Shown one piece after another: positions 4,071 to 25,670 of a DNA stretch of 27,849 nt. The notes beneath the pieces were generated by a model. That model was not told where the DNA came from. It was given only the letters and a program-made list of their open reading frames with translations, and did not search any database. Position numbers and translations under genes: made by a program. How positions within the stretch are numbered: the stretch's first letter is position 1; every line of letters starts with the position of its first letter. The DNA is from Alphaproteobacteria bacterium (GTDB lineage: Bacteria; Pseudomonadota; Alphaproteobacteria; UBA828): NCBI GenBank assembly GCA_022826345.1, contig JAJDVB010000122.1, positions 1 to 27,849 on the forward strand, read 5' to 3'.

Positions 4071-4400
4071 TCAATCGAGCACGTTGGCGATGACGATGCC
4101 CGCCTCGGCCGTGAAGGGGTTGACGAACTCCACGCCGCCCAGACGACGGCCGTGCTGCATGTCCTCGCTGAAGACGGTCGAGCAGCCGGCCTGACGGGCC
4201 GTCGCCCACAGCATGGCGTCCCAGAACGAGAAGCGGTGTTCGTCCACGGCGCTGATCGCGTCGACGAGAGTGGCGCTGTCGACCGAGGCCACCTCGAAAA
4301 CCTCTAGCCAGTCGCGCACGAACCGGCCGGCAACAGAAGGCGTAAGCAAGTCCTTCCGCGTGATCGCGTGGAAGAACTCGGCCAGGGCCTGAAGGGTCAC
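4071..4400 (-). pseudogene. VapC PIN toxin, 5'-truncated copy
   Basis: The 109 residues match the C-terminal three quarters of the intact VapC at 17704-18162 closely. Shared blocks are TLQALAEFFHA, RDWLEVFEVA, FWDA-LWAT and EDMQHGRRLGGV. Homology stops abruptly at about 4400, immediately before the truncated sulfite reductase that begins on the other strand. The missing part is the first 42 or so residues, including the first catalytic aspartate (D10 in the intact copy), and its antitoxin gene is gone too. The GTG at 4398-4400 is only the first available codon. Without the first PIN strand and aspartate it should be inactive. Confidence 0.85.
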
Positions 4401-9891: not shown

Positions 9892-10641
9892 TCAGTCGGC
9901 GCCGGCTTCCTTTCCGAGGGCAAGACGTACCGTTGCAACGATGGATGTGCAGTCGAGGGCGGCAATTTGGACCTGCTGCTCGGCCGTGTCCTGATCGAGG
10001 AACGCGTCCGGCATGACCATGGGACGGAACACAAGCCCGGAATCGAAAGCACCGGCCCGCGCCAGCACATGCACCACCTGCGTAGCAAACCCCCCGACAG
10101 AGCCCTCCTCAATCGTCACCAGCATCTCGTGGTTGGCTGCAAGGCGTTTGACGAGATCCTCGTCAAGGGGTTTTGCGAAACGGGCGTCAGCAACCGTCGT
10201 CGACAAGCTACTCGCGTCAAGCTCCTTGGCTGCCTCAAGACAGTCCTGCAGCCGTGCGCCGTACGATAGTAAGGCCACCCGCGTGCCCTCTCGTACGATT
10301 CTGCCCTGACCCAGCGCCAGTGCTTCGGGATTCTCCGGCAGCGCAACCCCGACGCCGACGCCACGCGGGTAGCGGAAAGCACATGGACGATCATCAATGG
10401 CGACCGCGGCAGCGACCATCCCGACCAACTCCGCCTCGTCCGCCGCTGCCATCAGGATCATTCCCGGAAGACAGCCCATATAAGCGATATCGAAGGCTCC
10501 ACAGTGATCCTGACCATCGAATCCCACGAATCCGGCCTGGCCGACAGCGAATCGGACCGGCAGATGCTGGATTGCCACATCGTGCACGATCTGGTCGAAG
10601 GCCCGCTGCAAGAACGTCGAAGATATCGCCGCAAAGGGTTT
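9892..10641 (-). pseudogene. dxs: dxs-like gene, 3' part (split by the transposon)
   Basis: This is the C-terminal half of a 1-deoxy-D-xylulose-5-phosphate synthase-like protein. It covers the pyrimidine-binding and transketolase C-terminal domains ([54 protein letters not shown]). It continues the half at 13515-14677: removing the transposon and one 8-bp target copy joins GMKP to [10 protein letters not shown] in frame and gives 634 residues, a normal DXS length. The frame runs out into the transposon end with no native start, so it should not be expressed as a functional enzyme. Confidence 0.9.
10634..10641. repeat. target-site duplication, left copy
   Basis: AAGGGTTT here is repeated exactly at 13515-13522 on the other side of the transposon. 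An 8-bp duplication is the length made by IS1595-family transposases, and deleting one copy with the element restores the dxs reading frame. Confidence 0.9.
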
Positions 10642-10689
10642 GGGGATTATATACCCGCGTTGACGGGGGCCGGTTAGCCCGCTAGGCTC
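10642..10689. repeat. left terminal inverted repeat of the IS1595 element
   Basis: It begins GGGGATTATATACC-C-GCGTTGAC and aligns to the reverse complement of 13467-13514 at 38 of 48 positions, including the terminal 14 bp exactly. It contains the -35 and -10 of a promoter pointing into the element. Confidence 0.9.
10660..10688 (+). promoter_or_regulatory. inward promoter in the left inverted repeat, upstream of the methyltransferase
   Basis: TTGACG (10660-10665) and TAGGCT (10683-10688) are 17 bp apart. The predicted transcript starts near 10695, just before the ATG at 10725. This supports 10725 as the first usable start codon for the methyltransferase message. The mirror promoter in the right repeat has the same layout. 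Confidence 0.65.
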
Positions 10690-10724
10690 CGGCGCGTACC
10701 TCACGACCACGGGGGGCGCGCAAG

Positions 10725-10925
10725 ATGGGCGAGCAAAACGACACCGAGCCGAGTAAGCTGGAAGAGGGGCAGCCCGGCAGCCCGGCAGCCCGGCAGCCCG
10801 GCAGCCCGGCAGCCCGGCAGCCCGGCAGCCCGGCAGCCCGGCAGCCCGGCAGGAAGTCGGAAAGCCGAACTGGAAGAACAGAACGCTCTTCCACGGCGAC
10901 AATCTCAAGTTTCTCCGCGCCATGA
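10725..10925 (+). other. leader frame of the methyltransferase, out of phase in this sequence
   Basis: From the first ATG after the promoter a 66-codon frame reads [14 protein letters not shown], then a GSPAARQP peptide repeat encoded by the octamer tract, then out-of-frame residues. It ends at a TGA that overlaps the internal ATG 10922 (ATGA). The distance 10725 to 10922 is 197 nt, so this ATG is out of frame with the methyltransferase by 2. Losing one 8-bp unit, or gaining two, would make it continuous. In the present state the short leader peptide may be made, with re-initiation at 10922 through the ATGA overlap. Confidence 0.6.
10768..10852 (+). repeat. octanucleotide repeat tract, (GGCAGCCC) x 10 plus a partial copy
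   Basis: Ten perfect tandem copies of GGCAGCCC run from 10768 to 10847, followed by GGCAG. The unit length is not a multiple of three, so slipped-strand gain or loss changes the reading frame between the upstream ATG (10725) and the methyltransferase body. Three units encode GSPAARQP in any frame and contain no stop codon, as expected for a contingency tract. Confidence 0.95.
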
Positions 10926-12190
10926 ATTCGGAGACGGTGGACCTCATTGCCACCGATCCGCCCTTCAAGAAGGGCAAGGACTTTCACGCAACGCCAGACT
11001 CCCTCGCGGACGGTGCGAGCTTCGAGGATCGCTGGACGTGGGAGGATGACGTTCACGGCGACTGGATTGACCAGCTCGAAGACGATCATCCGGCAGCGTG
11101 GGCGGTCATCGACTGGTCGCGCCTGTCCTACGGCGACGACATGGGCGCGTTCCTGTGCTTCATGGCCGTGCGCTTGCTCGAAATGCGACGCATCCTGAAG
11201 CCCGCGGGCAGCGTCTACCTCCACTGCGACCCGGACGCGAGCCATTACCTGAAGACTCTCATGGACGCCATTTTCGGGAAGAAGCACCTGCGGAACGAGA
11301 TTGTCTGGTGCTACAAGACGGGCGGACGATCAAAGAACCATTTTCCACGAAAACATGATTATCTTCTCTGGTACGGGAAACACCGGACTTCCCACACGTT
11401 CAACTATGACGCGGTGAGTCTTGATCGCGACCCAAGCACCATGCATGAGCCGGTGCTGATAGACGAGGCGGGGAAACCGTACCAGCGGAACATAAAGGCG
11501 GGGAAGGAATACAGATACTATCTCGACAAAGGCGTACTCCCTGATGATTGGTGGATTGATATACAGGCTCTCAATCCCGCCGCCAAAGAGCGATATGGCT
11601 ATCCGACGCAAAAGCCCTTGGCTCTCTACGAGCGCATCATTGACGCCTCTTCCCGCGTTGGAGAGATAGTTTTAGATCCGTTCTGCGGTTGCGCCACGAC
11701 GCCGATTGCGGCGGAGAGCAAGCGACGCCAGTGGGTAGGTATCGACATATGGGACAAAGCCCATGATGCCGTTCTTCACCGCTTGAGCGCGCGCGGTCTA
11801 GAGACCGAGGGTGCCGATTACTTCGCCAAGGTTGGGGATGTCTACATGGAAGACAAACCGCCTGAGCGATCAGACGACGGTGAAACAGCGGCGCAGTTCC
11901 TTCGCGTCAAAAAGCGCGTGCCAGAGCCGCCCGGCCCGAAGATGACGCGCGCGGCCATGTACGAGCACCTGCTAGGCCAGCACGGCCCGCGCTGCCAGGG
12001 CTGCGACCGCGTGTTCGACGATCCGCGCTACCTAGAGCTCGACCACAACACGCCACGCAGCGATGGCGGGTGGAACCACATTTCCAACAGAGTGCTGCTC
12101 TGCGGCCCCTGCAACCGCCTCAAGAGCAACATCTACACGCTGTCGGGGTTACGCGGGGAGAACAAGAAGCGCGGCCACATGGCCACCTAG
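10922..12190 (+). CDS. beta-class DNA methyltransferase fused to an HNH nuclease domain
   Basis: This protein joins an N6-adenine/N4-cytosine DNA methyltransferase to an HNH nuclease-like domain. Motif IV is TDPPF (11-15), YPTQKP lies at 227-232, and the AdoMet-binding DPFCGC at 252-257 follows, the order of beta-class enzymes; the region between holds target recognition. A zinc HNH follows: C358/C361, LELDH (H375), H386, N389, and C394/C397. The conserved lead-in to motif IV ([19 protein letters not shown]) is encoded upstream of ATG 10922 in the same frame but has no start codon after an in-frame TAA (10754). The full protein therefore needs ATG 10725 and a changed repeat number. From 10922 the protein lacks about 20 conserved residues and may be inactive. 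Methylation and cutting could form a self-contained modification system. Confidence 0.88.
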
Positions 12191-12205
12191 AGGGAGGGAG
12201 ACACG

Positions 12206-12451
12206 ATGACCGCGAAAGTCGAGATCGAGATGGCAGAAGATGGCGAGGTCGTCATCCTGACAGAGCCAAACGTGTCAGGCGAAGGACTCGTTGGGCTGCT
12301 CTTGAAAACACAGACGATGGAGTTCCATGCTTCTGATCTTCCGACCGAAGCCAATCTTCGAATCGCTCTACGTCCTCGGGACGCAAAAAAACTTGCACAG
12401 TCCTTACACCGGGTCGCGAAAAGATGTTTGAGAAGCCAGCGACTCCATTAG
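12206..12451 (+). CDS. small hypothetical passenger protein of the transposon
   Basis: This 81-residue protein starts at ATG 12206, after a strong GGAGGGAG ribosome site and 15 nt downstream of the methyltransferase stop, so it is almost certainly co-transcribed. It has an acidic first half (EIEMAEDGEVVILTEPN) and a basic helical end (RPRDAKKLAQSLHRVAKR). No known motif, signal or membrane segment is visible. It ends directly against the convergent transposase stop (12452). A role with the methyltransferase is only an inference from order. Confidence 0.7.
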   Translation: MTAKVEIEMAEDGEVVILTEPNVSGEGLVGLLLKTQTMEFHASDLPTEANLRIALRPRDAKKLAQSLHRVAKRCLRSQRLH

Positions 12452-13441
12452 TCACGACCGCGCCCCACTTGCCAGCCCGTTATCGGCGATCAGTGCTGCG
12501 TAGGGCAGGTTCTTTCCGATCATCCCGGCTGCAACGTCCGCCATTTGCGCCAGTGTGTCGCGCTCGCGGATGTTATGGCGACCGGAGAATTCGGCGATGT
12601 ACCGATGCAGGTGCTTCGGCGACAGCTTGTGGTACGTCCCGGCAATCCCGCGCCGGAACATCGCCCAGAAGCTCTCGATCCCGTTGGTGTGTGCCATCCC
12701 GCGAACAAACTCATTCACGCTATGGTTGACGGCCTCATGGTCGAACCAAGCATCCAGCGCATTGTAGGCGGCGCTCTCATCGGTGTAAACGGTCGCGCCC
12801 AACCGCACGTTCTCGGCCACGAAACCGGCGACGTGCGGGCCGTCAGTGCGCTGTACGTGGCGAACGGCAACGCGCTTGGTCTCCCGATCCTTCACGCCCA
12901 CGACCGCCTCTTTGCCCACGGCGCCGCGCCCGGTCCCGGCCAACTCGGCACGCTTGGCGTTCGACATGTTCTTGCGCTTCCCGCCCACATAGACCTCATC
13001 GGCCTCGACCGGGCCGTCGAACGGCGGGTTGTGGTCGTCATCGTCGCGGTCGAAAGCCTTGCGGATGCGCTGGAGCATGTACCAGGCGGTCTTCTGCGTG
13101 ACGTTGATCTCGCGATGCAGCTTCATGCTGCTCACGCCCTTCAACGAAGTCAGGTGCAGGTAGATCGCGTACACCCACTTGCGCAGAGGCAGAGGCGAGC
13201 GCTCCATGACGGTGCCGGTCTTCACGGAAAAGTACGACCGGCAATCGGAGCACCAATACGGCATGAACTCATGCTTGGATTCGCAGGTCCGCTCGCTACC
13301 GCAGCGCGGGCAGTGGCGGCCATTCGGCCAAATCTTCGCTTCAAACCACTTGCGGGCCGCGTCATCCGTCGGAAACAACTCGGCCATTTCCATGATCGAG
13401 ACGCCTTCGCGGTGGGACTTTCCGGGTGCTGTTGCGGTCAT
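12452..13441 (-). CDS. IS1595-family (ISXO2-like) transposase
   Basis: This 329-residue transposase moves the element by DDE chemistry. An N-terminal zinc ribbon (C44-x2-C47 and C64-x2-C67) is followed by a helix-turn-helix-like region (SMKLHREINVTQKTAWYMLQ). The ISXO2-like catalytic core follows, with D148 in VEADEVYVGGK, D221 in VYTDESAAYN and E256 in HTNGIESFW. All expected parts are present and the length is normal, so it is probably active. ATG 13441 has a GGGAG ribosome site about 9 nt upstream. Transcription should come from the promoter inside the right inverted repeat. Confidence 0.95.
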   Translation of the reverse strand: MTATAPGKSHREGVSIMEMAELFPTDDAARKWFEAKIWPNGRHCPRCGSERTCESKHEFMPYWCSDCRSYFSVKTGTVMERSPLPLRKWVYAIYLHLTSLKGVSSMKLHREINVTQKTAWYMLQRIRKAFDRDDDDHNPPFDGPVEADEVYVGGKRKNMSNAKRAELAGTGRGAVGKEAVVGVKDRETKRVAVRHVQRTDGPHVAGFVAENVRLGATVYTDESAAYNALDAWFDHEAVNHSVNEFVRGMAHTNGIESFWAMFRRGIAGTYHKLSPKHLHRYIAEFSGRHNIRERDTLAQMADVAAGMIGKNLPYAALIADNGLASGARS

Positions 13442-13466
13442 CGGGCTGACTCCCTGATTGCCCAGA

Positions 13467-13514
13467 GAGTCTAGCAGGTTACGTCGCCCTTGTCAACGCC
13501 GGTATATAATCCCC
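13467..13514. repeat. right terminal inverted repeat of the IS1595 element
   Basis: Read on the minus strand from 13514 it begins GGGGATTATATACC-G-GCGTTGAC and pairs with 10642-10689 at 38 of 48 positions. It holds the transposase promoter. Confidence 0.9.
13468..13496 (-). promoter_or_regulatory. transposase promoter inside the right inverted repeat
   Basis: A perfect TTGACA (13496-13491) is separated by 17 bp from TAGACT (13473-13468), about 26 nt upstream of the transposase ATG. The transposase bound at this end would cover its own promoter, giving autoregulation. Confidence 0.7.
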
Positions 13515-13522
13515 AAGGGTTT
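13515..13522. repeat. target-site duplication, right copy
   Basis: AAGGGTTT is identical to 10634-10641. See the left copy for its meaning. Confidence 0.9.
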
Positions 13523-14677
13523 CATGCCGTCGGCTGCCAGCCCCGCCGCAAATGTCACTGCATGTTGCTCCGACAGGCCAACATTGAACGTGCGATCGGG
13601 ATACACCTCACCGAACGGGTCGACGCCTGTCCCCGAGGGTAACGCCGCCGTGACGGCCACGATCCTGTCGTCGCGGCGCGCTTCTTCAGTCAGACTGTTC
13701 GCGAACACCCGCGCGTAGGTAGGCGGGTCGGACGCTCCGCCGTCAGACGCGCCGTCAGCAACTTCGGATTCTCCAACGCCCTGCAGTCGGTCGTTGGAGC
13801 TCTTCGCCGGGGGGCATCCCTTTTCCCTTTGGGTCACGACATGAATCAGGATGGGGCCGTCGTTGTCGTCGTCGTCGCGTATATTGCGTAAGATAGGAAT
13901 GAGATGATTCATGTTGTGGCCATCAATCGGCCCCACATAAAACATGCCAAGTTCTTCGAACAGCGTTCCGCCTGTCACAAAACTGCGAACATGGCTCTCG
14001 GCCCGTTGCGCTGACTTTTGAACTGCGCGCGGTAAGCGACTCGAGGCTCGCAGGCCGATGTCGCGCAACGACCGGTAAGATTTAGAGGAAATCAGCCGCG
14101 ACAGATAGGCCGACACGGTTTGGACCTGAGGCACTATCGACATGCTATCGTCGTTGAGAATGACGATCAGCTTGTTAGCCATCGCACCGGCGTTGCTAAG
14201 TCCTTCAAACGCCACTCCGCCGCTTATGGCATCGCGATCGATTACGGCGACCACCTTGTTGTCTTTATGCTGTAGATCTCGTGCCACTGAAAAACCAAGT
14301 GCCGCCGAGATTGAGGTCGAGGCATGGGTCGTGCCAAATGAATCATATTCGCTTTCCGAACGCTTGGTGAAGCCCGATAGCCCACCGCCCTGCCGCAGCG
14401 CGCGGATGCTATCGCGACGGCCCGTCAAGATCTGGTGAGGACACACCTGAGGACCCGCGTCCCAAATGAGCTGATCGGTAGGAGTGTCAAACAGGTAATG
14501 TAGTGCCACTGTCAGTTCGACAATGCTTAGGGCAGCATGCCAAGCTCCACCAGTGACCGAAACCATATCATTGACTTCAGCCCTCAACTCGTCGGCAAGC
14601 TGCTGCAGTTGACTCGGTTGCAAAGCTTTGAGGTCGCTCGGGTTCTCGATTCGGTCCAGCAATGGCGTATCTGGCAT
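13515..14677 (-). pseudogene. dxs: dxs-like gene, 5' part (split by the transposon)
   Basis: This is the N-terminal half of a 1-deoxy-D-xylulose-5-phosphate synthase-like protein, the thiamine-diphosphate enzyme that opens the MEP isoprenoid pathway. ATG 14677 has GAGGGAG 6 nt upstream. The fold signature is plain (VELTVALHYLFDTPTDQLIW, LSEQHAVTFAAGLAADGMKP), but key residues differ from active DXS. The first SGGH histidine is Ala45, the VGHQAYPH histidine is Pro76, and the metal-binding GDG is D147-R148-D149. The TTHASTSIS histidine is kept. The gene was therefore diverged or already failing before the transposon entered after GMKP. The frame runs 7 codons into the element and stops at 13493. 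Loss would be tolerable only if another dxs exists elsewhere. Confidence 0.9.
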
Positions 14678-15266
14678 AGTTATCTCCCTCGCATCGCAAC
14701 TTATTACCATCGATTTTGTCCCGGGCCGTGGTGTAAGAGCCTCGTGCTCTGCGCGGCATCCGGTGGGTAGGGCAGGGACGCTCGGTGATCGGCCCCCAGC
14801 GACCGGTCCGGTTCGAATGTTAGTGCATTGCGGGCTTGCCGCCCAGAGCTCGACCTACCTCGGGGATTTTGATTCGTGCCCCCCGGCTGTGGAAGCCGCC
14901 AAACTGATCTTTTCCCAGTCGAGCGGCTGTGCCCACTGCCTGCCTGTTCCGGGCGGGCCGCTATCTGTTCGGACTAACACCCACGTTACGCCCGCGGTTC
15001 GACCGGGCCAAGCGGCAGAGGCGCGGACGACCGCCGAGGACTCGGGCGCTTGCCGGCGATCATCCCGCCTCCTCGGCGCGAGGCGAGATCATCTTCCGGG
15101 CCTTCCTCGCCGGCTTCACCGTAGGCGCGGACGAGGCCAACTCGCCGGCACAGCGCGCTCGCCGGTACAGCACATCTGCTGGTGCAACGCACCCAATGTG
15201 CTTGCACGCGTGAGCACGCGGAAGTACGAATGTATGAATTTCCAACTACCAATCCCTGAGGTCGCC
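14678..15266. other. intergenic region, no gene recognised
   Basis: The block upstream of the dxs-like gene contains only shadow frames and no tRNA or recognisable motif. GC rises again from about 14900, marking the right edge of the lower-GC segment. The last 60 bp hold a possible promoter for the next operon. Confidence 0.4.
15202..15230 (+). promoter_or_regulatory. possible promoter of the AbrB/PIN TA operon
   Basis: TTGCAC (15202-15207) and TACGAA (15225-15230) are 17 bp apart, about 35 nt upstream of the antitoxin ATG. The inverted repeat GTGCT/AGCAC (15198-15217) overlaps the -35 and could be an antitoxin operator. The -10 match is weak. Confidence 0.35.
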
Positions 15267-15560
15267 ATGCCCCTCGTCACCGTCAAGCCCAGGTTCCAGG
15301 TCACCATCCCGGCCGGACTGCGCAAAGGCATCGATCTTCGCGAAGGCGACATCATGGAGGCGAGCCTCGTCGGCGACGGCATCCTCTTTCGTCCCAAGCA
15401 GGTGGTGGATCGCGAGGCGGCCGCGGGGCGCATCGGCGCCGCCCTCGCGGTGACCCAACCCTCGCCAGGGGACGCAGGCCGCTCCGAAGACGAGATCATG
15501 AACGACACCATCGCGGACATCGCCTCCTCGCGCCGGGAGCACCGCAGCCGTGAGAAATGA
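15267..15560 (+). CDS. AbrB/MazE-type (SpoVT-AbrB) antitoxin
   Basis: This 97-residue antitoxin has an N-terminal swapped-hairpin AbrB domain (VTVKPRFQVTIPAGLRKGID, then LREGDIMEASLVGDGILFRP). The KxRFQVTIPAxLRxxxxLxEGD pattern is diagnostic. The charged, flexible C-terminus should bind the PIN toxin. ATG 15267 follows a TGAGGT ribosome site. The stop overlaps the toxin start (ATGA), giving coupled translation. It probably represses its own promoter as a dimer or toxin complex. Confidence 0.88.
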   Translation: MPLVTVKPRFQVTIPAGLRKGIDLREGDIMEASLVGDGILFRPKQVVDREAAAGRIGAALAVTQPSPGDAGRSEDEIMNDTIADIASSRREHRSREK

Positions 15561-15949
15561 GGGTCGTCCTCGACTGCAACGTACTGGTATCCGCAGCACG
15601 GGTCGACGGCGCCTGCAGGGCGCTGCTGGACAGGGTGGTGCGCCAGCACGATATCGTCCTCTCCCGGCCCATCCTGGCGGAGTACGCAGCGGTGGCCGGG
15701 AGGCCCCGACAGGCGCCCTACCGGGACGCACTGCGGACCGTCATCGCCGAGATCGAGCGGATGGCCGTCATGGTCGAGCCGGCGGACGCGGTCTACGGCC
15801 TCCGGGACCCTGACGACGAAGTCTATCTGGCGACCGCCAAAGCTGGCGGCGCCGTCTTGATCACCGGCAACACCCGGGACTTCACGGAGTCGCGATACGG
15901 GACGGTCGAGGTGCTCACGCCCCGCGCCTTCCTCGATCGAACGACGTAG
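15557..15949 (+). CDS. PIN-family toxin paired with the AbrB-type antitoxin
   Basis: This 130-residue PIN ribonuclease is of the group annotated as putative toxin component, PIN family. Acidic active-site residues are visible: D6 in VVLDCNVLVSA, E42 in PILAEYAAV, D86/D87 in LRDPDDEVYLATA and D108 in TGNTRDF. The LRDPDDE-x-YLATA block is typical of this group and separates it from the VapCs elsewhere in the window. It starts at ATG 15557, inside the antitoxin stop. The length is usual, so it is likely functional. Confidence 0.88.
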   Translation: MRVVLDCNVLVSAARVDGACRALLDRVVRQHDIVLSRPILAEYAAVAGRPRQAPYRDALRTVIAEIERMAVMVEPADAVYGLRDPDDEVYLATAKAGGAVLITGNTRDFTESRYGTVEVLTPRAFLDRTT

Positions 15950-17703: not shown

Positions 17704-18162
17704 TCACGGATCGAGCATCGGCGCCATGAGCGTGGCGGCGTCGGCCGCAAACGGGTCGATGAACGCAACGCCACCCAGACGGCGTCCGTGCTGCATGTCC
17801 TCGGTCACGACTGCCGAGCAGCCCGCCTGCCGCACCGTCGCCCAAAGCAGCGCGTCCCAGAACGACAGACGGTGCTCGTCAACCGCGTTCATCGCGTCGA
17901 CGAGAGCCGCCCCGTTGGCCGCGGCGACCTCGAACACCTCCAGCCAGTCGCGCACGAAGTCGCCGGCTTGGGACGGCGTGAGCAGACCCTTCCGGGTGGT
18001 GGCATGGAAGAACTCGGCCAGCGCCTGAAGCGTCAGCACGCAGTCGCGCCGCGCCGCCCGCCCCACCAGCTCCACGGAGCGGCAGTGCCGCTCGCCGCCG
18101 TCCCGGTCGACCGCATAGACAAGAATGTTGGTGTCGAGAGAGAAGCGCGCCTTAGCGGTCAT
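17704..18162 (-). CDS. vapC: VapC-family PIN toxin (intact paralogue of the 4.1-4.4 kb fragment)
   Basis: This 152-residue PIN endoribonuclease has D10 in SLDTNILVY, E50 in ALAEFFHAT, D103 in FWDALLWAT and D122 in TEDMQHG. All four acidic positions are present, unlike in the truncated copy at 4071-4400. The start is ATG 18162, inside the last codons of the antitoxin gene (11-nt overlap). The length and motifs are normal, so it should be an active toxin when free of its antitoxin. Confidence 0.92.
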   Translation of the reverse strand: MTAKARFSLDTNILVYAVDRDGGERHCRSVELVGRAARRDCVLTLQALAEFFHATTRKGLLTPSQAGDFVRDWLEVFEVAAANGAALVDAMNAVDEHRLSFWDALLWATVRQAGCSAVVTEDMQHGRRLGGVAFIDPFAADAATLMAPMLDP

Positions 18163-18397
18163 AAAGCGCGGTCCGGTCGATCCTGAGCCCGCCGAGCGGC
18201 GCCCCCTCTTCCATCCGCGCCATCATGCGCCCATGGGCCGCCGCCCATTCGGGATCGGCGGCCTTGTCCGCAGTGTGGGGCACGAGCTTGGCCACGGGCC
18301 GGCCGCGCCGGGTGATCAGGAAGCCTTCGCCGCGCTCAACCTCGCGCATGAGCTTCGAGAACTCCTGGTTGGCGGTCATTAGGGAGACGGTGCGCAT
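18152..18397 (-). CDS. Phd/YefM-type antitoxin
   Basis: This 81-residue antitoxin has the prevent-host-death N-terminus (MRTVSLMTANQEFSKLMREV, then ERGEGFLITRRGRPVAKLVP). The N-terminal half should dimerise and bind the operator. The tail (GGLRIDRTALYDR) should wrap the VapC toxin. AGGAGGGGG lies 7 nt upstream of ATG 18397. It is the first gene of the operon and overlaps vapC by 11 nt. Confidence 0.9.
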   Translation of the reverse strand: MRTVSLMTANQEFSKLMREVERGEGFLITRRGRPVAKLVPHTADKAADPEWAAAHGRMMARMEEGAPLGGLRIDRTALYDR

Positions 18398-18415
18398 GGG
18401 TCTGCCCCCTCCTTC

Positions 18416-18456
18416 TAGTATGTAGTATATTTGTCGATAGTCCGGCCCTGCGTCAA
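18416..18456 (-). promoter_or_regulatory. promoter/operator region of the Phd/VapC operon
   Basis: An AT-rich island stands out in the GC-rich context. On the plus strand it contains TAGTA-tg-TAGTA, a direct repeat. On the minus strand TATACT (18429-18424) fits a -10. TTGACG (18456-18451) resembles a -35 but is 21 bp away, so exact promoter elements are uncertain. The repeat is a plausible Phd operator. Confidence 0.4.
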
Positions 18457-19140
18457 GGCCGCCTGTCGGCTTGGTCGATGCGCAGTCCGGCGAAGGCGAG
18501 GCAGGCGGCGGCCTCGGCTTCGGTCTCGAAGGTCCCCAACTCATCGCCTGTTTCCAGGTCGATCACGGTGATCTGCGGCGGCCAGAGCGGCACGAGGTGA
18601 CGCTCTGGCGCGCGGATATTGGAGCGATCCGCGCAGCGCGGACAGCGTGCGGCGCCTGGCGTGTCGGCCCCGCAATCCACGCATCGCCGCTGCGCGCGCC
18701 GTCTTGCGCAGCGCTTCTTGCCGCTGGCGCTCTTTCGCTCGGACGAGACGCGCTACTTCTCCAGGGTGAGGCACTTGCCGCAACGGGACACGCCCCCGGG
18801 GCTGGGCTCGGAGCAGCGCACGCGGCGGCCGGCAGCACGCCGGGCGGCATAGCGCCGCCGGTCGAGCTTCCGCCGCGCCGCGCAGCAGGGCTCGCAGACC
18901 GAGGCATTGTCGGAGGGGCGGCGCCGGCCGCAGGACGTACAGAGCCCCGACTCCTGCCGGTCGCGGCGGGCGCGTTCGGCGGCGCGCCTCTTCTCGGCAC
19001 AACCGCCGCACACCTCGAGGCCGTGCTCGGGCGAAACGTGGCAGCACCGGGTACACAGCCCCTGTGCGGCGCGGCCGGCATGACGTTGGCGAAGGAAGCG
19101 ATCGTGCGCTTCCTTACTTGGCGGCGTCCCGGTAGGGCAT
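18453..19140 (-). pseudogene. decayed multi-zinc-ribbon protein
   Basis: Combining frames recovers a protein of about 228 codons. It starts MPYRDAAK at ATG 19140, hits TAA at 19114-19116, and one frameshift later continues KEAHDRFLRQ with repeated zinc ribbons. LCTRC...VCGGC and LCTSC...VCEPC are complete; the third (RRVRC...RCGKC) has lost its first cysteine. An in-frame TAG (18753-18755) follows, then a fourth ribbon (RCVDC...RCPRC) and a C-terminal domain (LWPPQITVIDLETGDELGTF, then ETEAEAAACLAFAGL). The frameshift, the stop and the missing Cys show decay. The C-terminal 75 codons remain open from an internal ATG at 18680. Function is unknown; cysteine ribbons suggest nucleic-acid or protein binding. 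Confidence 0.7.
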
Positions 19141-20872: not shown

Positions 20873-22120
20873 CTATCTGGGGTCAAAACTGGGCGAAGAA
20901 CCACGCCCGTCCGACCCGACCGCTGCCGCAGTGCCGTCAGGAGCTAAGTCATCCGGCAGGATATTCGCTCCGATCGCGTCCGCCACGCGCGCTGCGGCCT
21001 CCTTCACGGTGTCTCCGCCAAGATGCGCGTAGCGCGCCGCGCTCTTCATCTGGGAGTGCCCAAGAAGCTTGGCAATGACCGGCAGGCTCTCACCGAGAGA
21101 GAGCGCGCGGCTCGCAAAGGAATGTCGCAGATCGTGAAGCCGAACGTCCTCCAGTTCCGCTCGCGCGCGGATGCGAAACCAATGGTTGTCCAGCGACGAC
21201 AGCCGCTGCCCCGGACGAGTACCCACGAGTACCCACGGATTGCCGGCCAAGCGCGGCACCGCGGCAAGAACCTCCGCCGCCGCCGGCGACAGTGAGACCA
21301 CGCGCGGGCCCGTCTTTGAATCGCGCAAGCGCAGCTCGCCCGCGCCCAAGTCCACATCCTTCCACTGCAGGGTCATGACCTCGTTGCGTCGGCACCCGGT
21401 CAGCATCAGAAGCCGGATCGCCGCTATGGCATGCACAGGCGCCTCGTCTGCGGCCTCCATCTCATCGAGCACGCGGCCGAGACGGCGAAACTCGATATCG
21501 GTCAGGAAGCGCTCCCGACGGCCCACCCTGTAGCGCTGCACCTGCCGGCACGGGTTTGCTCCCTCGGGCACGAGACCCCACACCGCAGCTTGCCGGATCA
21601 GCTGCGAGAGCGTGTCCACGGCACGGTTCGCCGTGTAGGGCCGCTCTCGCAGCCCGTAGTGCAGATCGGCCACGTGCTTGGGTGTCAGCGCTCCGATCGG
21701 CACACCCCCAAGCGCCGGTACGATGTGCTTGTCGACAACCGTCCGGCATTGGACCACAGTCCTTGGCTTGCACCGGACTTCGACGTGCTCGCGGAGAAAG
21801 CGCGACGCCACTTCGGCCACCGTCGGGCTCTTCCGTCTCGGCGCCGGCGACAGGCCCGGGTCCTCGCCCGCCTTGATGCGCACGATCGCTGCCGCTGCAC
21901 GGCGTCGCGCCTGGTTCGCAGTGATCACTCCGTGACGGCCCACCGTGACCCGCTTCGACCCCTCAGGCCCCCTCGTCTGCACGATGTACACCTTGGATCC
22001 CGAGGGATAGACCCGGACCCCGAAGCCCGCAAGTTCCCGGTCCCAGAACATCGTGTCCTTTTCAACGCCGAGCGCGTCCACCGTGCGCCGCGAGATCGAG
22101 CGGTACTTGAGCTTTGCCAT
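20873..22120 (-). CDS. tyrosine recombinase / integrase (second of a tandem pair)
   Basis: This 415-residue site-specific recombinase has an N-terminal arm-binding domain of the DUF4102 type (SISRRTVDALGVEKDTMFWD, FGVRVYPSGSKVYIVQTRG), a core-binding domain and a C-terminal catalytic domain. Catalytic residues are visible: R in LLMLTGCRRNEVM, H-x-x-R in LHDLRHSFAS, H in LLGHSQMKSAARY and the nucleophilic Y in that segment. ATG 22120 has GGAGGG upstream. It lies 13 bp after the first integrase on the same strand and is clearly homologous to it, so it arose by duplication or as a paired system. It probably serves an integrative element whose limits are not visible here. Confidence 0.93.
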   Translation of the reverse strand: MAKLKYRSISRRTVDALGVEKDTMFWDRELAGFGVRVYPSGSKVYIVQTRGPEGSKRVTVGRHGVITANQARRRAAAAIVRIKAGEDPGLSPAPRRKSPTVAEVASRFLREHVEVRCKPRTVVQCRTVVDKHIVPALGGVPIGALTPKHVADLHYGLRERPYTANRAVDTLSQLIRQAAVWGLVPEGANPCRQVQRYRVGRRERFLTDIEFRRLGRVLDEMEAADEAPVHAIAAIRLLMLTGCRRNEVMTLQWKDVDLGAGELRLRDSKTGPRVVSLSPAAAEVLAAVPRLAGNPWVLVGTRPGQRLSSLDNHWFRIRARAELEDVRLHDLRHSFASRALSLGESLPVIAKLLGHSQMKSAARYAHLGGDTVKEAAARVADAIGANILPDDLAPDGTAAAVGSDGRGSSPSFDPR

Positions 22121-22133
22121 CGACTCGGCCCTC

Positions 22134-23345
22134 CTATTCCCCTTCTCCGCCCTCTGGCCCGCCGCCACGGGTATACGCGGCGATGTCGGCGCCGATGCTC
22201 GCGCCCACCCTGCCCGCTGCAGCCCTCTCCGTTTCGCGCGCAAGATGCGCGTAGCGCGCGGTGCTCTCCATGTCGAGATGGCCGAGGAGCTTGCCGATCA
22301 TCGAGAGGCTCTCACCCAGCGCCAGCGCGCGCGAGGCGTAAGAGTGTCGAAGGTCATGGATGCGCAACTCCTCAAGACCCACGCCCTCGCGCAGCCAATG
22401 CCAATCCGCATAGAGGCTTTTCAAGTGCCCTCCCGTCCGGGCGTCGGCGATCACCCAGGGATTGCCGGGGATGCGGGGGATTGACGCAAGCACGCGCTCT
22501 GCCATCGGCGTCAGCGCCACCTTGCGCGCCCCGGTTTTTCCCACCCGCAGCCGGAGCTCCCCCGCCGTGCGGTCCACGTCGTCCCACCGAAGGGTGAGGA
22601 TCTCCGTCAGCCGGCAGCCCGTCAGCATCAGAAGACGGAAGGCCGCCACCGCATGGCACGAGACCGTGCCGGCGGCCTCCGCCTCGGTGAGTGCAGCACC
22701 CAAGTGGCGGTACTCGTCCACCGTCAGGAAGCGCTCGCGTTTGCGCTCCTTGTACTTGCGCACGCCCCGGCATGGGTTGGTGCCTTCGGGCAGCATGCCC
22801 CAGACCGTCGCCAGGGAGAACATCTTGCTCAGGATCATCAGGGCGCGGTTTGCGGCGCGGGGTGTGTGGCGCATCTGGTAATGCAGCGCCGATATATGCC
22901 CGCCGTCGACGGCGGCGACGGGCTTGGCTCCGAGCGCGGGCAGGATGTGGTTCTCGAGGGAGCCGCGGTAGATGCCTGCAGTATGGGCGTTGCAGTTCTG
23001 CGCGACATGGCCGGTCATGTATCGCCCGGCGAGATCGAGGACGGTGAGCTCTGACTGCGCCGTTGAAGCTGTCGGGTCCTCTCCCTTCTTGATGCGGTCG
23101 ATGACGACGGCGGCGTGCTTTCTGGCCTGGTCTGCGGTGATGTCTCCATGCTGGCCAAGAGTGACGCGCCTTGGGGCGGAGTGGGCTCTGGCCTGCGCAA
23201 CGTAGACCTTCCGGCCCGAGGGGTAGACGCGGACGCCGAAGCCCGGGAGGTCCCTGTCCCAGAAGACAGCGTCGGAAGTATCGACGGCGAGAGCGTCGAC
23301 GGTTCGCTTCGATATTGAGAGTCCGGATCGGGCGGGCTTGGTCAT
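22134..23345 (-). CDS. tyrosine recombinase / integrase (first of a tandem pair)
   Basis: This 403-residue integrase has the same domain order: DUF4102-type arm domain (SISKRTVDALAVDTSDAVFW, FGVRVYPSGRKVYVAQARA), core-binding and catalytic domains. R is in LLMLTGCRLTEILTLRW, H-x-x-R in IHDLRHSYAS, and H and Y in LLGHLDMESTARYAHL. ATG 23345 is preferred because the longer frame (to 23402) would be translated through a repeat cluster. The ribosome site is weak (AAGAG). The upstream direct repeats may be arm-type sites or an operator. Both integrases keep complete catalytic sets, so neither is obviously dead. Confidence 0.93.
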   Translation of the reverse strand: MTKPARSGLSISKRTVDALAVDTSDAVFWDRDLPGFGVRVYPSGRKVYVAQARAHSAPRRVTLGQHGDITADQARKHAAVVIDRIKKGEDPTASTAQSELTVLDLAGRYMTGHVAQNCNAHTAGIYRGSLENHILPALGAKPVAAVDGGHISALHYQMRHTPRAANRALMILSKMFSLATVWGMLPEGTNPCRGVRKYKERKRERFLTVDEYRHLGAALTEAEAAGTVSCHAVAAFRLLMLTGCRLTEILTLRWDDVDRTAGELRLRVGKTGARKVALTPMAERVLASIPRIPGNPWVIADARTGGHLKSLYADWHWLREGVGLEELRIHDLRHSYASRALALGESLSMIGKLLGHLDMESTARYAHLARETERAAAGRVGASIGADIAAYTRGGGPEGGEGE

Positions 23346-23349
23346 CTCT

Positions 23350-23398
23350 TGATTACGGTATCTGCTTTTGATTACGGTATCTGCCGATTCCGTAATCA
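23350..23398. repeat. direct and inverted repeat cluster upstream of the integrases
   Basis: TGATTACGGTATCTGC occurs twice (23350-23365 and 23369-23384), 19 bp apart. The first half appears a third time inverted as CCGTAATCA (23390-23398). It begins 5 bp from the integrase ATG. It could be integrase arm sites next to an attachment site, or an operator for the int genes. Confidence 0.8.
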
Positions 23399-23587
23399 CC
23401 ATATGCTATCCGTCATCACTCCGCAAGCAACCGATGTCGAGCTCGCGCGTATTGAAGCGTAGGCGAGTCAGGGTCACAAGCTCTGGTTAAAACTATAAAA
23501 CGTTGTACTATATGTCATTTTTTAACTCTTGTCGTGCTCCAGCGTGCTCGAGCGTTCGCGTGTCAGATAGGCAGCTGTCATGAAATT

Positions 23588-23615
23588 AAAAAACGAGGCC
23601 TCCCGACGAGGCCTC
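23588..23615 (-). terminator. hairpin with T-run on the minus strand; may also act in the lipoprotein leader
   Basis: GAGGCCTC-ccgac-GAGGCCTC (23595-23615) forms an 8-bp stem. Read on the minus strand it is followed by a run of six T (23593-23588), the form of an intrinsic terminator that would shield the integrases. No minus-strand gene is seen to its right. On the plus strand the same hairpin lies in the 5' leader of the lipoprotein gene, about 30 nt before its ATG. Confidence 0.6.
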
Positions 23616-23641
23616 TTCAGAACGAGGAGAGCCTCAGAGCC

Positions 23642-25576
23642 ATGAAGAAGACGAAGCTGACTCGCAGTTTGCTGGCGGCGTGCTCGATCGTCGCCCTTTC
23701 CGCCGTCATGTACGGCTGCAGTAGTAGCGGACCAAGCCAGGCCGACCTTGATGCGGCCGAGGCGGCCGCGGCCGCGGCTGCGGCTGATGCGGCAGCGGCC
23801 GCAGAGGCCCAGGCGGCGGCAGAGGCCGCAGCCGCAGAGGCCGAGGCGGCGGCAGAGGCCGAAGCCGCTGCGGCCGAGGCGGCGGCAGAGGCCCAGGCGG
23901 CGGCAGAGGCCGCGGCCGCTGCGGCAGAGGCCCAGGCGGCGGCCGATCTTGCGGAGACCCAGGAGGCGGCAGCCGCGGCGGCCATGGCAGCGATGACGGC
24001 CTCGACCGAGGCCGCGGCGTCGGCCATGAGTGCTGCGAATGCGACGGAGAACATCGCGACCCTGCAGACCGGCGGAACAGCGGCAGCCTCTGCAAAGGCG
24101 GCCAGTGATGCCGCTGATGCCGCGATGGCTGCGTACATGAAAGCCAAGGCGGCTTCCGAAGCCGCTGCTGCGGCGGACAACGGCCCCGATGCGGAAGCAG
24201 CTTGGGCCATGGCGGTGTCAGCTCAAGCAGATGCCGAAGCCGCCGCGATGACGGCTAGCGAAATGTCCGATGCAGCGGTCGAAGCCGCGATGACGGAACT
24301 CCACATCGACGGCACCGTGAAGACCGTGGGCGAGAGTTCCGTCGACGCGGCGACGGGCACGCTGACTTCACAGCCCGCTAATCGGGTGACCACCGGCTAC
24401 ATCGGCAGCGTCTCCCGAGTCGTGGATGCGATTGACGGGGTTGACTTCAATCAACGGGGTATGTCGGCAGAGGCCTTCACCTCAGATGGTATCGCAATCC
24501 CCGACGACACCACCGACAATGCTGCGGACGTCGCGTACGTTCAGGCCGTCGGGGCTGGATCGGCAAACATCGGCAAGGTGCTCGACACCTCTGACGACAT
24601 GGCCCGGCTGACGATCATCACCGCTCGTGAGGGCTCAAAGATGGTTCGGGTGTTTGCCGATAGGTTGGCTGACAACACCGCAGGAGGCCTCTTGACTGCT
24701 CAGGGCGCCCTTGCGGATATCGATACCTCCACCGGCGCAGACGGTACTCAGGCCGCAAGCGTGAAGTCGATCGGCGATTTTTACATGGCGGCAAACACGG
24801 CTGATACGGACAACAACGCGCTTGACGCAATGGACGAGGTCGATCCCGCTTCCGACCCAGTGGAATTGTTCGAGCTGTCTGGAACAATAACAGACGGTAC
24901 CACGGACACCCCAACAACGAGCTATGCTCGGGTCGTGTCGACGACCACAAACAACGACACTGGCGTCACCACTCGCGTTTACCGGGCCGTCGACATCATG
25001 GCCGTCGCGGGGCCTGACGTTATTGGCGATACGGACGACAATCCTGAGGAGGTCCAGGTAAGGGCGTCCCTTCCCACGGCGGATGACTACGACCACATCC
25101 ACTTCGGTGTGTGGGCGGGCCTCATGGACAACGAGGACGGCGATAACTCCGTGATTGCCGATCTCGGCATCGGTTTCGTGCAGAACTACGATATGTCCGG
25201 CGTCACCACGGGGCACGTCACTGGTACCGCCAAATACAGCGGCGACTGGGTTGCTGTCGTGAGGCAGATGCACTCCACCAAGATGAGTGTCGAAGACGGC
25301 CATGCCAGCATGACCGCGAACTTCTCCACGGACGAGTTCGAAGCCGTGCTGGATGATCTTGCCACGCTGACAGGCGAGATGAACGGCAACACGTTCTCGG
25401 GCACGGATGCTACGGTCTCGCACGATGACATGGATGCGTCGGGCACCTTCGCCGGTTCGTTCAGCGGTGCCGTCTACGGCGACGACGGTGCGGAAGCCGG
25501 CGGCGTCTTCAGCTTTGACGGTGGCGATGCTGGCGCGTTCCGTGGTGCCTTCGGCGGCAGGGACGACAATCAGTAG
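23642..25576 (+). CDS. surface lipoprotein with Ala-rich stalk and TbpB-like C-terminal barrel
   Basis: This 644-residue lipoprotein has a signal peptide (KKTKLTRSLLAACSIVALSA) and a lipobox ending at C26 (VMYGC-SSS). A very Ala/Glu-rich helical stalk runs from about residue 35 to 220. A Thr/Asp-rich middle follows, then a C-terminal region resembling the TbpB beta-barrel: GTAKYSGDWVAVVRQM, MTANFSTDEFEAVLDDLATL, then AVYGDDGAEAGGVFSFDGGD and GAFGGR. The GxFYGpxAxExGGVF pattern typifies such barrels. These are usually flipped to the outer face by a Slam protein, and one begins downstream. ATG 23642 has GAGGAG 12 nt upstream, slightly far. Ligand unknown. A terminator separates it from the next gene. 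Confidence 0.85.
   Translation: MKKTKLTRSLLAACSIVALSAVMYGCSSSGPSQADLDAAEAAAAAAAADAAAAAEAQAAAEAAAAEAEAAAEAEAAAAEAAAEAQAAAEAAAAAAEAQAAADLAETQEAAAAAAMAAMTASTEAAASAMSAANATENIATLQTGGTAAASAKAASDAADAAMAAYMKAKAASEAAAAADNGPDAEAAWAMAVSAQADAEAAAMTASEMSDAAVEAAMTELHIDGTVKTVGESSVDAATGTLTSQPANRVTTGYIGSVSRVVDAIDGVDFNQRGMSAEAFTSDGIAIPDDTTDNAADVAYVQAVGAGSANIGKVLDTSDDMARLTIITAREGSKMVRVFADRLADNTAGGLLTAQGALADIDTSTGADGTQAASVKSIGDFYMAANTADTDNNALDAMDEVDPASDPVELFELSGTITDGTTDTPTTSYARVVSTTTNNDTGVTTRVYRAVDIMAVAGPDVIGDTDDNPEEVQVRASLPTADDYDHIHFGVWAGLMDNEDGDNSVIADLGIGFVQNYDMSGVTTGHVTGTAKYSGDWVAVVRQMHSTKMSVEDGHASMTANFSTDEFEAVLDDLATLTGEMNGNTFSGTDATVSHDDMDASGTFAGSFSGAVYGDDGAEAGGVFSFDGGDAGAFRGAFGGRDDNQ
23754..23990 (+). repeat. 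low-complexity Ala/Glu-coding repeat region
   Basis: Imperfect repeats of gaggcggcggcagaggccgcagcc type units encode (A)nEAQAAAEAAAAEAEAAAE. The tract is prone to unequal recombination but keeps the frame when 3n units change, so stalk length may vary. Confidence 0.7.
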
Positions 25577-25603: not shown

Positions 25604-25610
25604 TTTAGTG

Positions 25611-25647
25611 GCGCCCGGTCCGGCAACGGGTCGGGCGCTATTTTCTT
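25611..25647 (+). terminator. Rho-independent terminator after the first lipoprotein gene
   Basis: GCGCCCG (25611-25617) pairs with CGGGCGC (25632-25638), with additional inner CCG/CGG pairing, followed by TATTTTCTT. It lies 35 nt after the lipoprotein stop and would end or reduce transcription before the second lipoprotein gene. Confidence 0.8.
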
Positions 25648-25670
25648 ACCCCCGTCGAGGAGGAATAAGC

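What the first reader, a model, noticed from the sequence alone, without database searches (positions are those of the whole stretch)
10725..12190. Octanucleotide tract looks like a phase-variation switch for a methyltransferase-HNH protein
Ten tandem GGCAGCCC units (10768-10847) sit between a promoter-proximal ATG (10725) and the conserved N-terminus of a DNA methyltransferase. The distance from ATG 10725 to the in-frame ATG 10922 is 197 nt. In this sequence the upstream start is out of frame and terminates at a TGA overlapping ATG 10922. Nine or twelve units would place it in frame and restore the conserved residues ([12 protein letters not shown]...) ahead of motif IV. No other start codon precedes motif IV in the methyltransferase frame after the TAA at 10754. 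Phase-variable methyltransferases with simple repeats are known (Mod proteins of Haemophilus and Neisseria), but an 8-bp tract in a mobile-element methyltransferase-HNH fusion is unusual to my knowledge.
Basis: partly seen in the sequence, partly recalled or inferred. Interest (0 to 1): 0.88.

Follow-up and report, generated by a model that had tools for sequence, protein, structure and literature searches.

The report
Transposon-borne methylase with slippage-type switch
A jumping DNA element carries a DNA-marking enzyme fused to a DNA-cutting domain, and a stuttering eight-letter repeat at the start of its gene looks like a reversible on/off switch, here set to off.

Summary
In detail: 10.6 perfect GGCAGCCC units (10768-10852) lie between ATG 10725 and the conserved N-terminus of a DNA methyltransferase-HNH protein. 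Ten units put the ATG out of frame; 9 or 12 restore it. Eight relatives enclose transposase and methylase in the same way. In the methylase family such tracts recur at this place: an octamer in Nitrospira, a heptamer in Boseongicola, poly-G in two Chloroflexi, repeat-encoded leaders in further proteins; 5 of 105 loci carry one. The octamer and heptamer units are arrayed nowhere else in their genomes. On a tree eight tract bearers need eight changes. The internal Met 10922 would lose a core strand and an Asp-Asn pair found in 300 of 300 complete relatives, so 10 units should mean OFF. Best reading: slipped-strand phase variation of a transposon passenger. Not shown: unit number changing within one population, methylation, or cleavage. 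Phase-variable methylases are a known kind; the IS1595 carrier, the methylase-HNH chain and the 7-8-nt units make this a new variant.

The parts
10634..10641 (.). left copy of the 8-bp target-site duplication AAGGGTTT (in dxs)
   Evidence: identical to 13515-13522
10642..10689 (.). left terminal inverted repeat of the IS1595-type element (GGGGATTATATACC...)
   Evidence: 50-nt arms, 80% complementary, starting 2 nt outside; first 20 nt match in 19 of 20
10660..10688 (+). possible promoter inside the left end: TTGACG-17 nt-TAGGCT (weak -10)
   Evidence: own reading, positions checked; not reported by the consensus scan, which found the counterpart TTGACA-17-TAGACT in the right end (13496-13468, minus strand)
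10725..10925 (+). leader ORF of the 10-unit allele: ATG 10725 to TGA 10923-10925, 66 codons; the ATG is the proposed start of the full methylase
10768..10852 (+). octanucleotide tract (GGCAGCCC)10.6, proposed slippage switch
10862..10921 (+). conserved N-terminal block [20 protein letters not shown] of the methylase, in frame but cut off from ATG 10725 in the 10-unit allele
10922..12190 (+). methyltransferase-HNH ORF as listed from the internal ATG (422 aa); methylase domain about 10937-11767, HNH domain about 11993-12130
12206..12451 (+). small ORF (81 aa) inside the element, no Pfam, PADLOC or NCBIfam match and no tblastn match in the 88 loci then held
12452..13441 (-). IS1595-family DDE transposase, 329 aa, convergent with the methylase
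13467..13514 (.). right terminal inverted repeat
13515..13522 (.). right copy of the 8-bp target-site duplication AAGGGTTT
9892..10641 (-). C-terminal part of the split dxs (1-deoxy-D-xylulose-5-phosphate synthase)
13523..14710 (-). N-terminal part of the split dxs

Best explanation
The region is a 2873-bp IS1595-family transposon with a passenger gene for a beta-class DNA methyltransferase fused to an HNH nuclease domain. It jumped into dxs. Translation of the passenger is meant to begin at ATG 10725, 36 nt beyond the end of the left inverted repeat. Slipped-strand gain or loss of whole 8-nt units in the tract just after that start shifts the reading frame, so one unit number in three gives the full enzyme (9 or 12 units: ON) and the others a short leader peptide (10 units, as here: OFF). 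The OFF state could leak slightly through re-initiation at the overlapping ATGA at 10922, but that product lacks the first strand and helix of the methylase and should be inactive. Shown by sequence: tract, frames, transposon anatomy, recurrence of tracts in relatives, single occurrence of two long tract units in their host genomes. Inferred: that the tract mutates often enough to switch, that the enzyme methylates and cuts DNA, and that switching is under selection.
For: Tract and frames. Transposon: transposase, inverted repeats, perfect 8-bp duplication, and an uninterrupted 646-codon dxs frame across the empty site. Start at 10725 rather than 10922: of 340 relatives held, 300 had the N-terminal block complete before a DPPF motif, and 300 of 300 carry Asp-Asn at residues 13-14; the model gives the first 30 residues mean pLDDT 89-94, with strand 8-11 and helix 14-20; the sister protein P0003 (84% identical) starts MGEPNWKNR and the window leader starts MGE. 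Recurrence: 5 of 105 unique leaders carry a tract against 23 of 3091 control windows; within 100 nt of the block 5 of 106 against 3 of 621 upstream regions of other ORFs, p 0.0023. Arrays of period 4-12 with at least 4 copies: 2 of 107 leaders against 1 in about 7856 control windows, p 0.0005. In-frame alleles: L054 poly-G 11; leaders of P0226 (GTGDRGP x6), P0308 (GQPGSRAA x2.2) and P0079 (KQAS x2.5). Out-of-frame allele: L025 poly-G 12, no in-frame start. Scattered gains: 8 bearers, 8 changes. Three exact copies of GAAGAGCA occur only at this leader in a 2.5-Mb genome, of CAGGGAC only at its leader in a 4.1-Mb genome. Enzyme: Pfam methylase and HNH above cut-off; fold match to CcrM, RsrI and M.BceJIV; the window keeps 110 of 111 columns invariant in the other 36 rows of A1; middle-region swaps, e.g. 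P0004/P0066 96% - 28% - 92% along the chain.
Against: No unit-number change at this locus or within one population was observed; no genome, reads or second allele of this element were available. With the same thresholds on both sides, enrichment over other ORF starts is weak in the 250-nt window (6 of 103 against 12 of 594, p 0.037) and not significant for periods of at least 4 alone (2 of 103 against 6 of 594, p 0.34; within 100 nt 2 of 106 against 1 of 621, p 0.057). Most relatives, 100 of 105, have no such tract. One further octamer array, of another unit, lies between genes in the Nitrospira genome, so such arrays are not confined to methylases. The tract folds no better than shuffled sequence (z -0.57). 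The tracts in L010 and L043 contain assembly gaps, so their phase is unknown. The nearest relative, P0003, has no tract.
Confidence: 0.72

Rival explanations
1. The tract is a dead expansion: a slippage event once put this passenger gene out of frame, and what is seen is a decaying pseudogene in a transposon that no longer needs it. (The rivals listed here are not all mutually exclusive, so their odds need not sum to one with the best reading.)
For: This copy is out of frame and the closest relative P0003 has no tract; an insertion in dxs would be expected to be harmful or recent.
Against: No stop elsewhere in the 1.3-kb methylase-HNH frame; 110 of 111 columns invariant in the other 36 aligned relatives are kept, the exception being Glu for Gln at residue 55; perfect target duplication and a full-length transposase frame; tract-bearing in-frame relatives.
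Confidence: 0.15
2. The tract is one of the dispersed 7- to 8-nt tandem arrays known from some bacterial genomes (recalled: the short tandemly repeated repetitive sequences of cyanobacteria) and happens to have landed in a leader that tolerates it; frame effects are incidental.
For: An octamer array of another unit, (CGGCGATC)6.9, lies at a contig end between genes in G001.
Against: Each of the two tested leader units is arrayed only there in its genome; no array in 800,000 bases sampled from two single-contig genomes and none in the rest of the 146 loci.
Confidence: 0.1
3. The switch grades rather than gates: translation re-initiates at ATG 10922 through the ATGA overlap, so the unit number selects between a long and a short enzyme of different activity, as reported for G-tract variation of HsdS in NgoAV.
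For: ATGA overlap at 10922-10925 in the 10-unit state and the same overlap (ORF ending 4061, ORF starting 4058) in L010 as assembled; passages of PMC7394358 on NgoAV.
Against: The short form lacks a core strand and Asp-Asn invariant in 300 of 300 complete relatives. The ATGA arises from the conserved Met-Asn codons, so the overlap needs no selection.
Confidence: 0.08
4. Assembly or sequencing error in the unit count; the true allele is in frame and fixed.
For: Assemblies of relatives have gaps inside such tracts (L010 and L043).
Against: The 85-bp tract is gapless here and shorter than common read lengths; even a miscount would leave a mutable tract in place.
Confidence: 0.06

Closest known systems
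Phase-variable Type III mod and Type I hsd genes (phasevarions; Haemophilus, Neisseria, Moraxella)
   Same: simple repeats whose unit is not a multiple of 3 in an adenine-methylase ORF, giving ON/OFF by frameshift (passages of PMC7394358, which give 17.4% of Type III mod genes and 10% of Type I systems with repeats, 13.8% of Type I systems switching when recombination is included); shuffled recognition regions (recalled for Mod).
   Different: no Res or HsdR partner in the element; single chain with an HNH domain; best PADLOC match is a Type II methylase; unit of 7-8 nt; carried by an IS1595 transposon.
Phase-variable Type IIG enzyme of Campylobacter jejuni (PMC4889913, seen only in a search listing and the start of its abstract)
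   Same: one chain with methylase and, by recall, nuclease; switching of expression
   Different: by recall a poly-G tract and a PD-(D/E)XK nuclease; not a transposon passenger
IS1595-family insertion sequences and their passenger-bearing members (Siguier and co-workers 2009, recalled, not read)
   Same: transposase family, GGGG-type ends, 8-bp duplication
   Different: no title or abstract start on a repeat-switched methylase-HNH passenger appeared in the listings; of those papers only passages of PMC7371123 and PMC6563490 were opened
Beta-class N6-adenine methylases CcrM, RsrI, M.BceJIV
   Same: fold and motif order
   Different: these lack, by recall, the HNH domain and the tract

Membership tests
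IS1595-family transposon | IS1595-type DDE transposase | tested here: met
   PF12762 3.5e-39; NF033547 186.4 bits, cut-off 75
IS1595-family transposon | terminal inverted repeats and 8-bp target duplication | tested here: met
   19 of 20 end bases match, AAGGGTTT on both sides, empty site gives an open dxs frame
IS1595-family transposon | actual transposition | not testable with these tools
   no experiment
Repeat-mediated phase-variable methylase | perfect repeat tract, unit not divisible by 3, between start codon and catalytic domain | tested here: met
Repeat-mediated phase-variable methylase | an ON frame exists at other unit numbers | tested here: met
   9 and 12 units, by frame arithmetic
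Repeat-mediated phase-variable methylase | unit number varies between cells or strains | tested here: inconclusive
   tract length and unit differ between relatives; no second allele of this element
Repeat-mediated phase-variable methylase | methylation follows the unit number | not testable with these tools
   no methylome
Type III Mod | partner Res helicase-nuclease gene | tested here: not met
   within the element only methylase-HNH, small ORF and transposase were found; a Res gene elsewhere in the genome could not be sought
Beta-class adenine methylase | motif IV before motif I, fold of CcrM and RsrI | tested here: met
   DPPF at 32-35, DPFCG at 272-276; N6 specificity itself untested
Dispersed short tandem repeat arrays | same unit array at many places in the genome | tested here: inconclusive
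   not met in G001 and G003; window genome not held

The most novel reading that the evidence does not exclude
A mobile, self-contained restriction-modification-like module that repeatedly evolves its own slippage switch: IS1595-type transposons (here in hosts of at least three phyla by record titles) carry a methylase-HNH gene between genomes, swap its recognition region, and can arrive silent in an unmethylated host and be switched on later, so that epigenetic phase variation itself moves between species as part of a transposon.
Probability: 0.3. Interest if true: 0.82.

Novelty: new variant of a known kind. Interest (0 to 1): 0.6.

Why it matters
Phase-variable methylases are best known from host-adapted pathogens (passages of PMC7394358). 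Here the same device recurs in a transposon-associated methylase family whose 80 best genome records are, but for one, titled MAG, with tracts scattered over the family tree at one position. It gives a direct way to ask whether slippage switches are selected for defence, for tolerance of a possibly self-cutting passenger, or for gene regulation, and it offers a ready count: unit numbers and methylation in long-read metagenomes.

Tried and rejected
Viral contigs: no exact match to four GGCAGCCC units; 8 relatives, 33-43% identical in the best segment. Phage and plasmid records: only distant methylases (below 60% identity); 0 of 210 phage and 1 of 2360 plasmid records with a match cover 80% of the query. 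Genome draws at E up to 1e-150, centre genome included, gave few relatives: 1 of 146, 1 of 194, 2 of 24, 1 of 120, 3 of 295 and 5 of 28 genomes; in the first, second and fourth the one hit was the centre itself. One family gave 20 of 98 (one search returned the same set). DNA hairpin as driver of slippage: not supported. The consensus promoter scan did not report the left-end promoter. Dispersed arrays as explanation. The small ORF has no family. Of 337 relatives, 35 start within 20 residues of the DPPF motif, nearly all at the internal Met; they were not counted as OFF alleles, because contig ends, gaps and lost starts give the same picture; P0123 and P0225 among them correspond to the tract-bearing L010 and L043. 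P0149 and P0032 leaders were not counted as tracts on the tree. L101 (L028) poly-C lies upstream of its ATG; it is kept in the 5 of 105 and 5 of 106 counts but not labelled on the tree. L142 enters only the 250-nt window. The host of the window was not identified; that many relatives come from sponge symbionts is recalled from isolate names, not from a call.

Full report
Observation. The tract is as described: GGCAGCCC repeated 10.6 times without error at 10768-10852, the only perfect period 4-12 array of at least four copies in the 27.8-kb window, never matched in 100 shuffles. ATG 10725 and the internal ATG 10922 are 197 nt apart and out of frame. By frame arithmetic, 9 or 12 units connect ATG 10725 to the methylase-HNH frame (485 or 493 codons), 10 units stop at TGA 10923-10925 after 66 codons, and 8 or 11 units stop at 11047.

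What carries it. The gene lies in a transposon. A DDE transposase of the IS1595 family runs from 13441 to 12452. The ends of the element, 10642 and 13514, are inverted repeats (50-nt arms 80% complementary; 19 of the first 20 bases alike) flanked by the perfect 8-bp duplication AAGGGTTT. Leaving out the element and one duplication copy gives a 646-codon dxs frame, stop included, without internal stops; the two halves match TIGR00204 over positions 3-383 and 377-614 of 616, each below the whole-protein cut-off as expected for halves. The right end carries a TTGACA-17-TAGACT promoter-like site facing the transposase; the left end holds TTGACG-17-TAGGCT facing the methylase, my own reading (positions checked), not reported by the scan.

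Where translation should start. The family is large: the search scored only the 8000 candidates sharing most words, all passed, and the 120 listed all carry both Pfam domains. Relatives usually start a few residues before a block [13 protein letters not shown]. Of 340 relatives held, 300 have that block complete before a DPPF motif, and in 300 of 300 the Asp and Asn (13 and 14 of P0001) are invariant. In the AlphaFold2 model (mean pLDDT 73.8, pTM 0.67, 37 sequences) the first three blocks of ten residues have means of 93, 89 and 94, with a strand at 8-11 and a helix at 14-20. The fold matches CcrM, RsrI, M.BceJIV and EcoP15I Mod, as does the profile. Starting at 10922 (residue 21) would remove the strand, the helix and the Asp-Asn pair. 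The sister protein P0003 (84%) starts MGEPNWKNR; the window leader starts MGE and the methylase frame after the tract reads KPNWKNR, as if leader and tract had been inserted behind the third codon (inference). ATG 10725 is the only usable start between the left end and the tract.

The same element type elsewhere. With the window transposase, 10 of the 88 loci then held showed a homologue near the methylase, 36-59% identical. In 8 of these 10, ends starting GG with 17-20 of 20 matching bases and a perfect 8-bp duplication enclose transposase and methylase (L004, L006, L008, L010, L013, L017, L024, L082); in L002 and L023 one gene lies at the very start of the contig piece and none was found. 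The order differs: in some, such as L010, the transposase precedes the methylase on the same strand; in others, such as L008, L013 and L024, the two converge as in the window. The ends of L024 begin GGAGACG, unlike the rest. L009 looks like a methylase-only version with such ends. After a second search round, 20 of 146 loci, duplicates and two short fragments included, had an IS1595-type match. So the gene is a recurrent IS1595 passenger, but most of the loci show no such transposase nearby.

Tracts in relatives. Among 105 unique loci with at least 60 nt upstream (one of 106 dropped), 5 have a tract in the 250 nt before the conserved block: L010, Nitrospira sp. SB0677_bin_15, GAAGAGCA, 6.9 plus 6.9 units around a 100-N gap, starting at an ATG that overlaps the transposase stop as TAATG; L043, Boseongicola sp. 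SB0675_bin_26, CAGGGAC, 8.9 plus 8.1 units around a 10-N gap; L025, Chloroflexi, G12 with no in-frame start; L054, Chloroflexi, G11 with an in-frame ATG; L028, C11 upstream of its ATG. Control windows in the same loci: 23 of 3091. Against upstream regions of other ORFs, period 3 left out: 100-nt window 5 of 106 against 3 of 621, p 0.0023; 250-nt window 6 of 103 against 12 of 594, p 0.037; periods of at least 4 only, 2 of 106 against 1 of 621, p 0.057, and 2 of 103 against 6 of 594, p 0.34. For longer arrays (period 4-12, at least 4 copies) the leaders of L010 and L043 (and their duplicates L093, L099) hold the only ones in loci L001-L146; with 1.16 Mb sampled from four host genomes added, 2 of 107 leaders against 1 in about 7856 windows, p 0.0005.

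Protein leaders. Of 337 relatives with a readable N-terminus from three searches (three more had no DPPF in the first 200 residues), 21 have a long leader, 4 of these with tandem residues, and 35 start within 20 residues of the motif, nearly all at the internal Met. P0226 (72% identical to the L043 protein) reads MKKPLTRNSARQTPSGTGDRGPGTGDRGP... in frame, and the L043 leader reads MAETMKKALTRNSSRQASSGTRDQGPGTRDQG: a related heptamer-type leader in the ON state. P0308 reads KEGQPGSRAAGQPGSRAAGQEANW; an 8-residue period fits three 8-nt units, inferred from protein only. P0079 reads KQASKQASKQ, which fits a 4-nt unit, likewise inferred. P0149, from Nitrospira sp. SB0661_bin_20, shares 91% of its N-terminal part with P0123 (the L010 protein) but has a short, degenerate leader. 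On a tree of 73 sequences (a sample of those held, built without the leader), the 8 rows labelled as tract bearers need 8 changes, also when only well supported branches count (shuffled mean 7.7): tracts were gained, or lost, many times.

Unique in the genome. Three exact copies of GAAGAGCA occur only in the L010 leader in the 2.5-Mb genome G001 and in none of 17 other genomes; three of CAGGGAC only in the L043 leader in the 4.1-Mb genome G003 and in none of the 17 others; GGCAGCCC/G in none of these 18. Against this, one other octamer array, CGGCGATC x 6.9, sits at a contig end between genes in 280,784 bases sampled from G001; G003 had none in 110,900 bases. Two single-contig genomes had none in 400,000 bases each.

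The enzyme. The window keeps 110 of 111 columns that are invariant in the other 36 rows of alignment A1. The middle of the chain, where the recognition region is expected, is swapped between three pairs of relatives chosen by eye: P0004/P0066 96%, 28%, 92%; P0003/P0023 89%, 36%, 86%; P0123/P0149 91%, 32%, 78% identity for the N-terminal, middle and C-terminal parts. This is what a working, specificity-changing methylase family would show. Methylation and HNH cleavage are untested.

Reading. Taken together, a slippage-driven ON/OFF switch is the best explanation of the tract, and the sequenced allele is OFF. Direct proof of switching is missing. Literature: passages of PMC7394358 and PMC11868660 describe repeat-driven switching of methylases of Type I and Type III systems. 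The listings of searches of the open-licence library, which lacks most subscription papers, show no title or abstract start on a repeat-switched methylase-HNH in an IS1595 element; most listed papers were not opened. Search 60, for octanucleotide repeat with phase variation, gave one paper, on Haemophilus (listing only).

Noticed in passing
9892-14710 (minus strand): dxs, a gene of isoprenoid precursor synthesis, is split by the transposon with a perfect target duplication; whether a second dxs exists could not be checked because no genome is held.
   Followed up: partly
20873-23402 (minus strand): Two adjacent, overlapping tyrosine-integrase ORFs with arm DNA-binding domains.
   Followed up: no
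2108-2542, 4071-4400, 15557-15949, 17704-18162, with Phd/YefM antitoxin 18152-18544: Four PIN-domain ORFs, possibly toxins, and one antitoxin-like ORF in about 16 kb.
   Followed up: no
23534-25576 and 25608-27431: Two neighbouring long ORFs with lipoprotein-like starts (by eye) and alanine- or glutamate-rich repeats, no Pfam match.
   Followed up: no
L105 and L010 (genome G001): Two IS1595-methylase copies with 85% identical transposases in one Nitrospira genome, one with and one without the octamer tract.
   Followed up: partly
L009 340-1885: A methylase-HNH gene alone between IS1595-like ends with a perfect 8-bp duplication: possible non-autonomous element.
   Followed up: partly
L179 1-55 (genome G001): An octamer array CGGCGATC x 6.9 cut off by the contig end between genes; both it and the half tracts of L010 are 55 nt long, which looks like an assembler limit.
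   Followed up: partly
L005 / L090: The methylase frame is open 438 nt upstream of the block, and its upstream translation contains LPWNNLIADNG, resembling the window transposase C-terminus (LPYAALIADNG): possible transposase-methylase fusion remnant.
   Followed up: no
P0004/P0066, P0003/P0023, P0123/P0149: Middle region of the methylase swapped between otherwise close relatives.
   Followed up: yes
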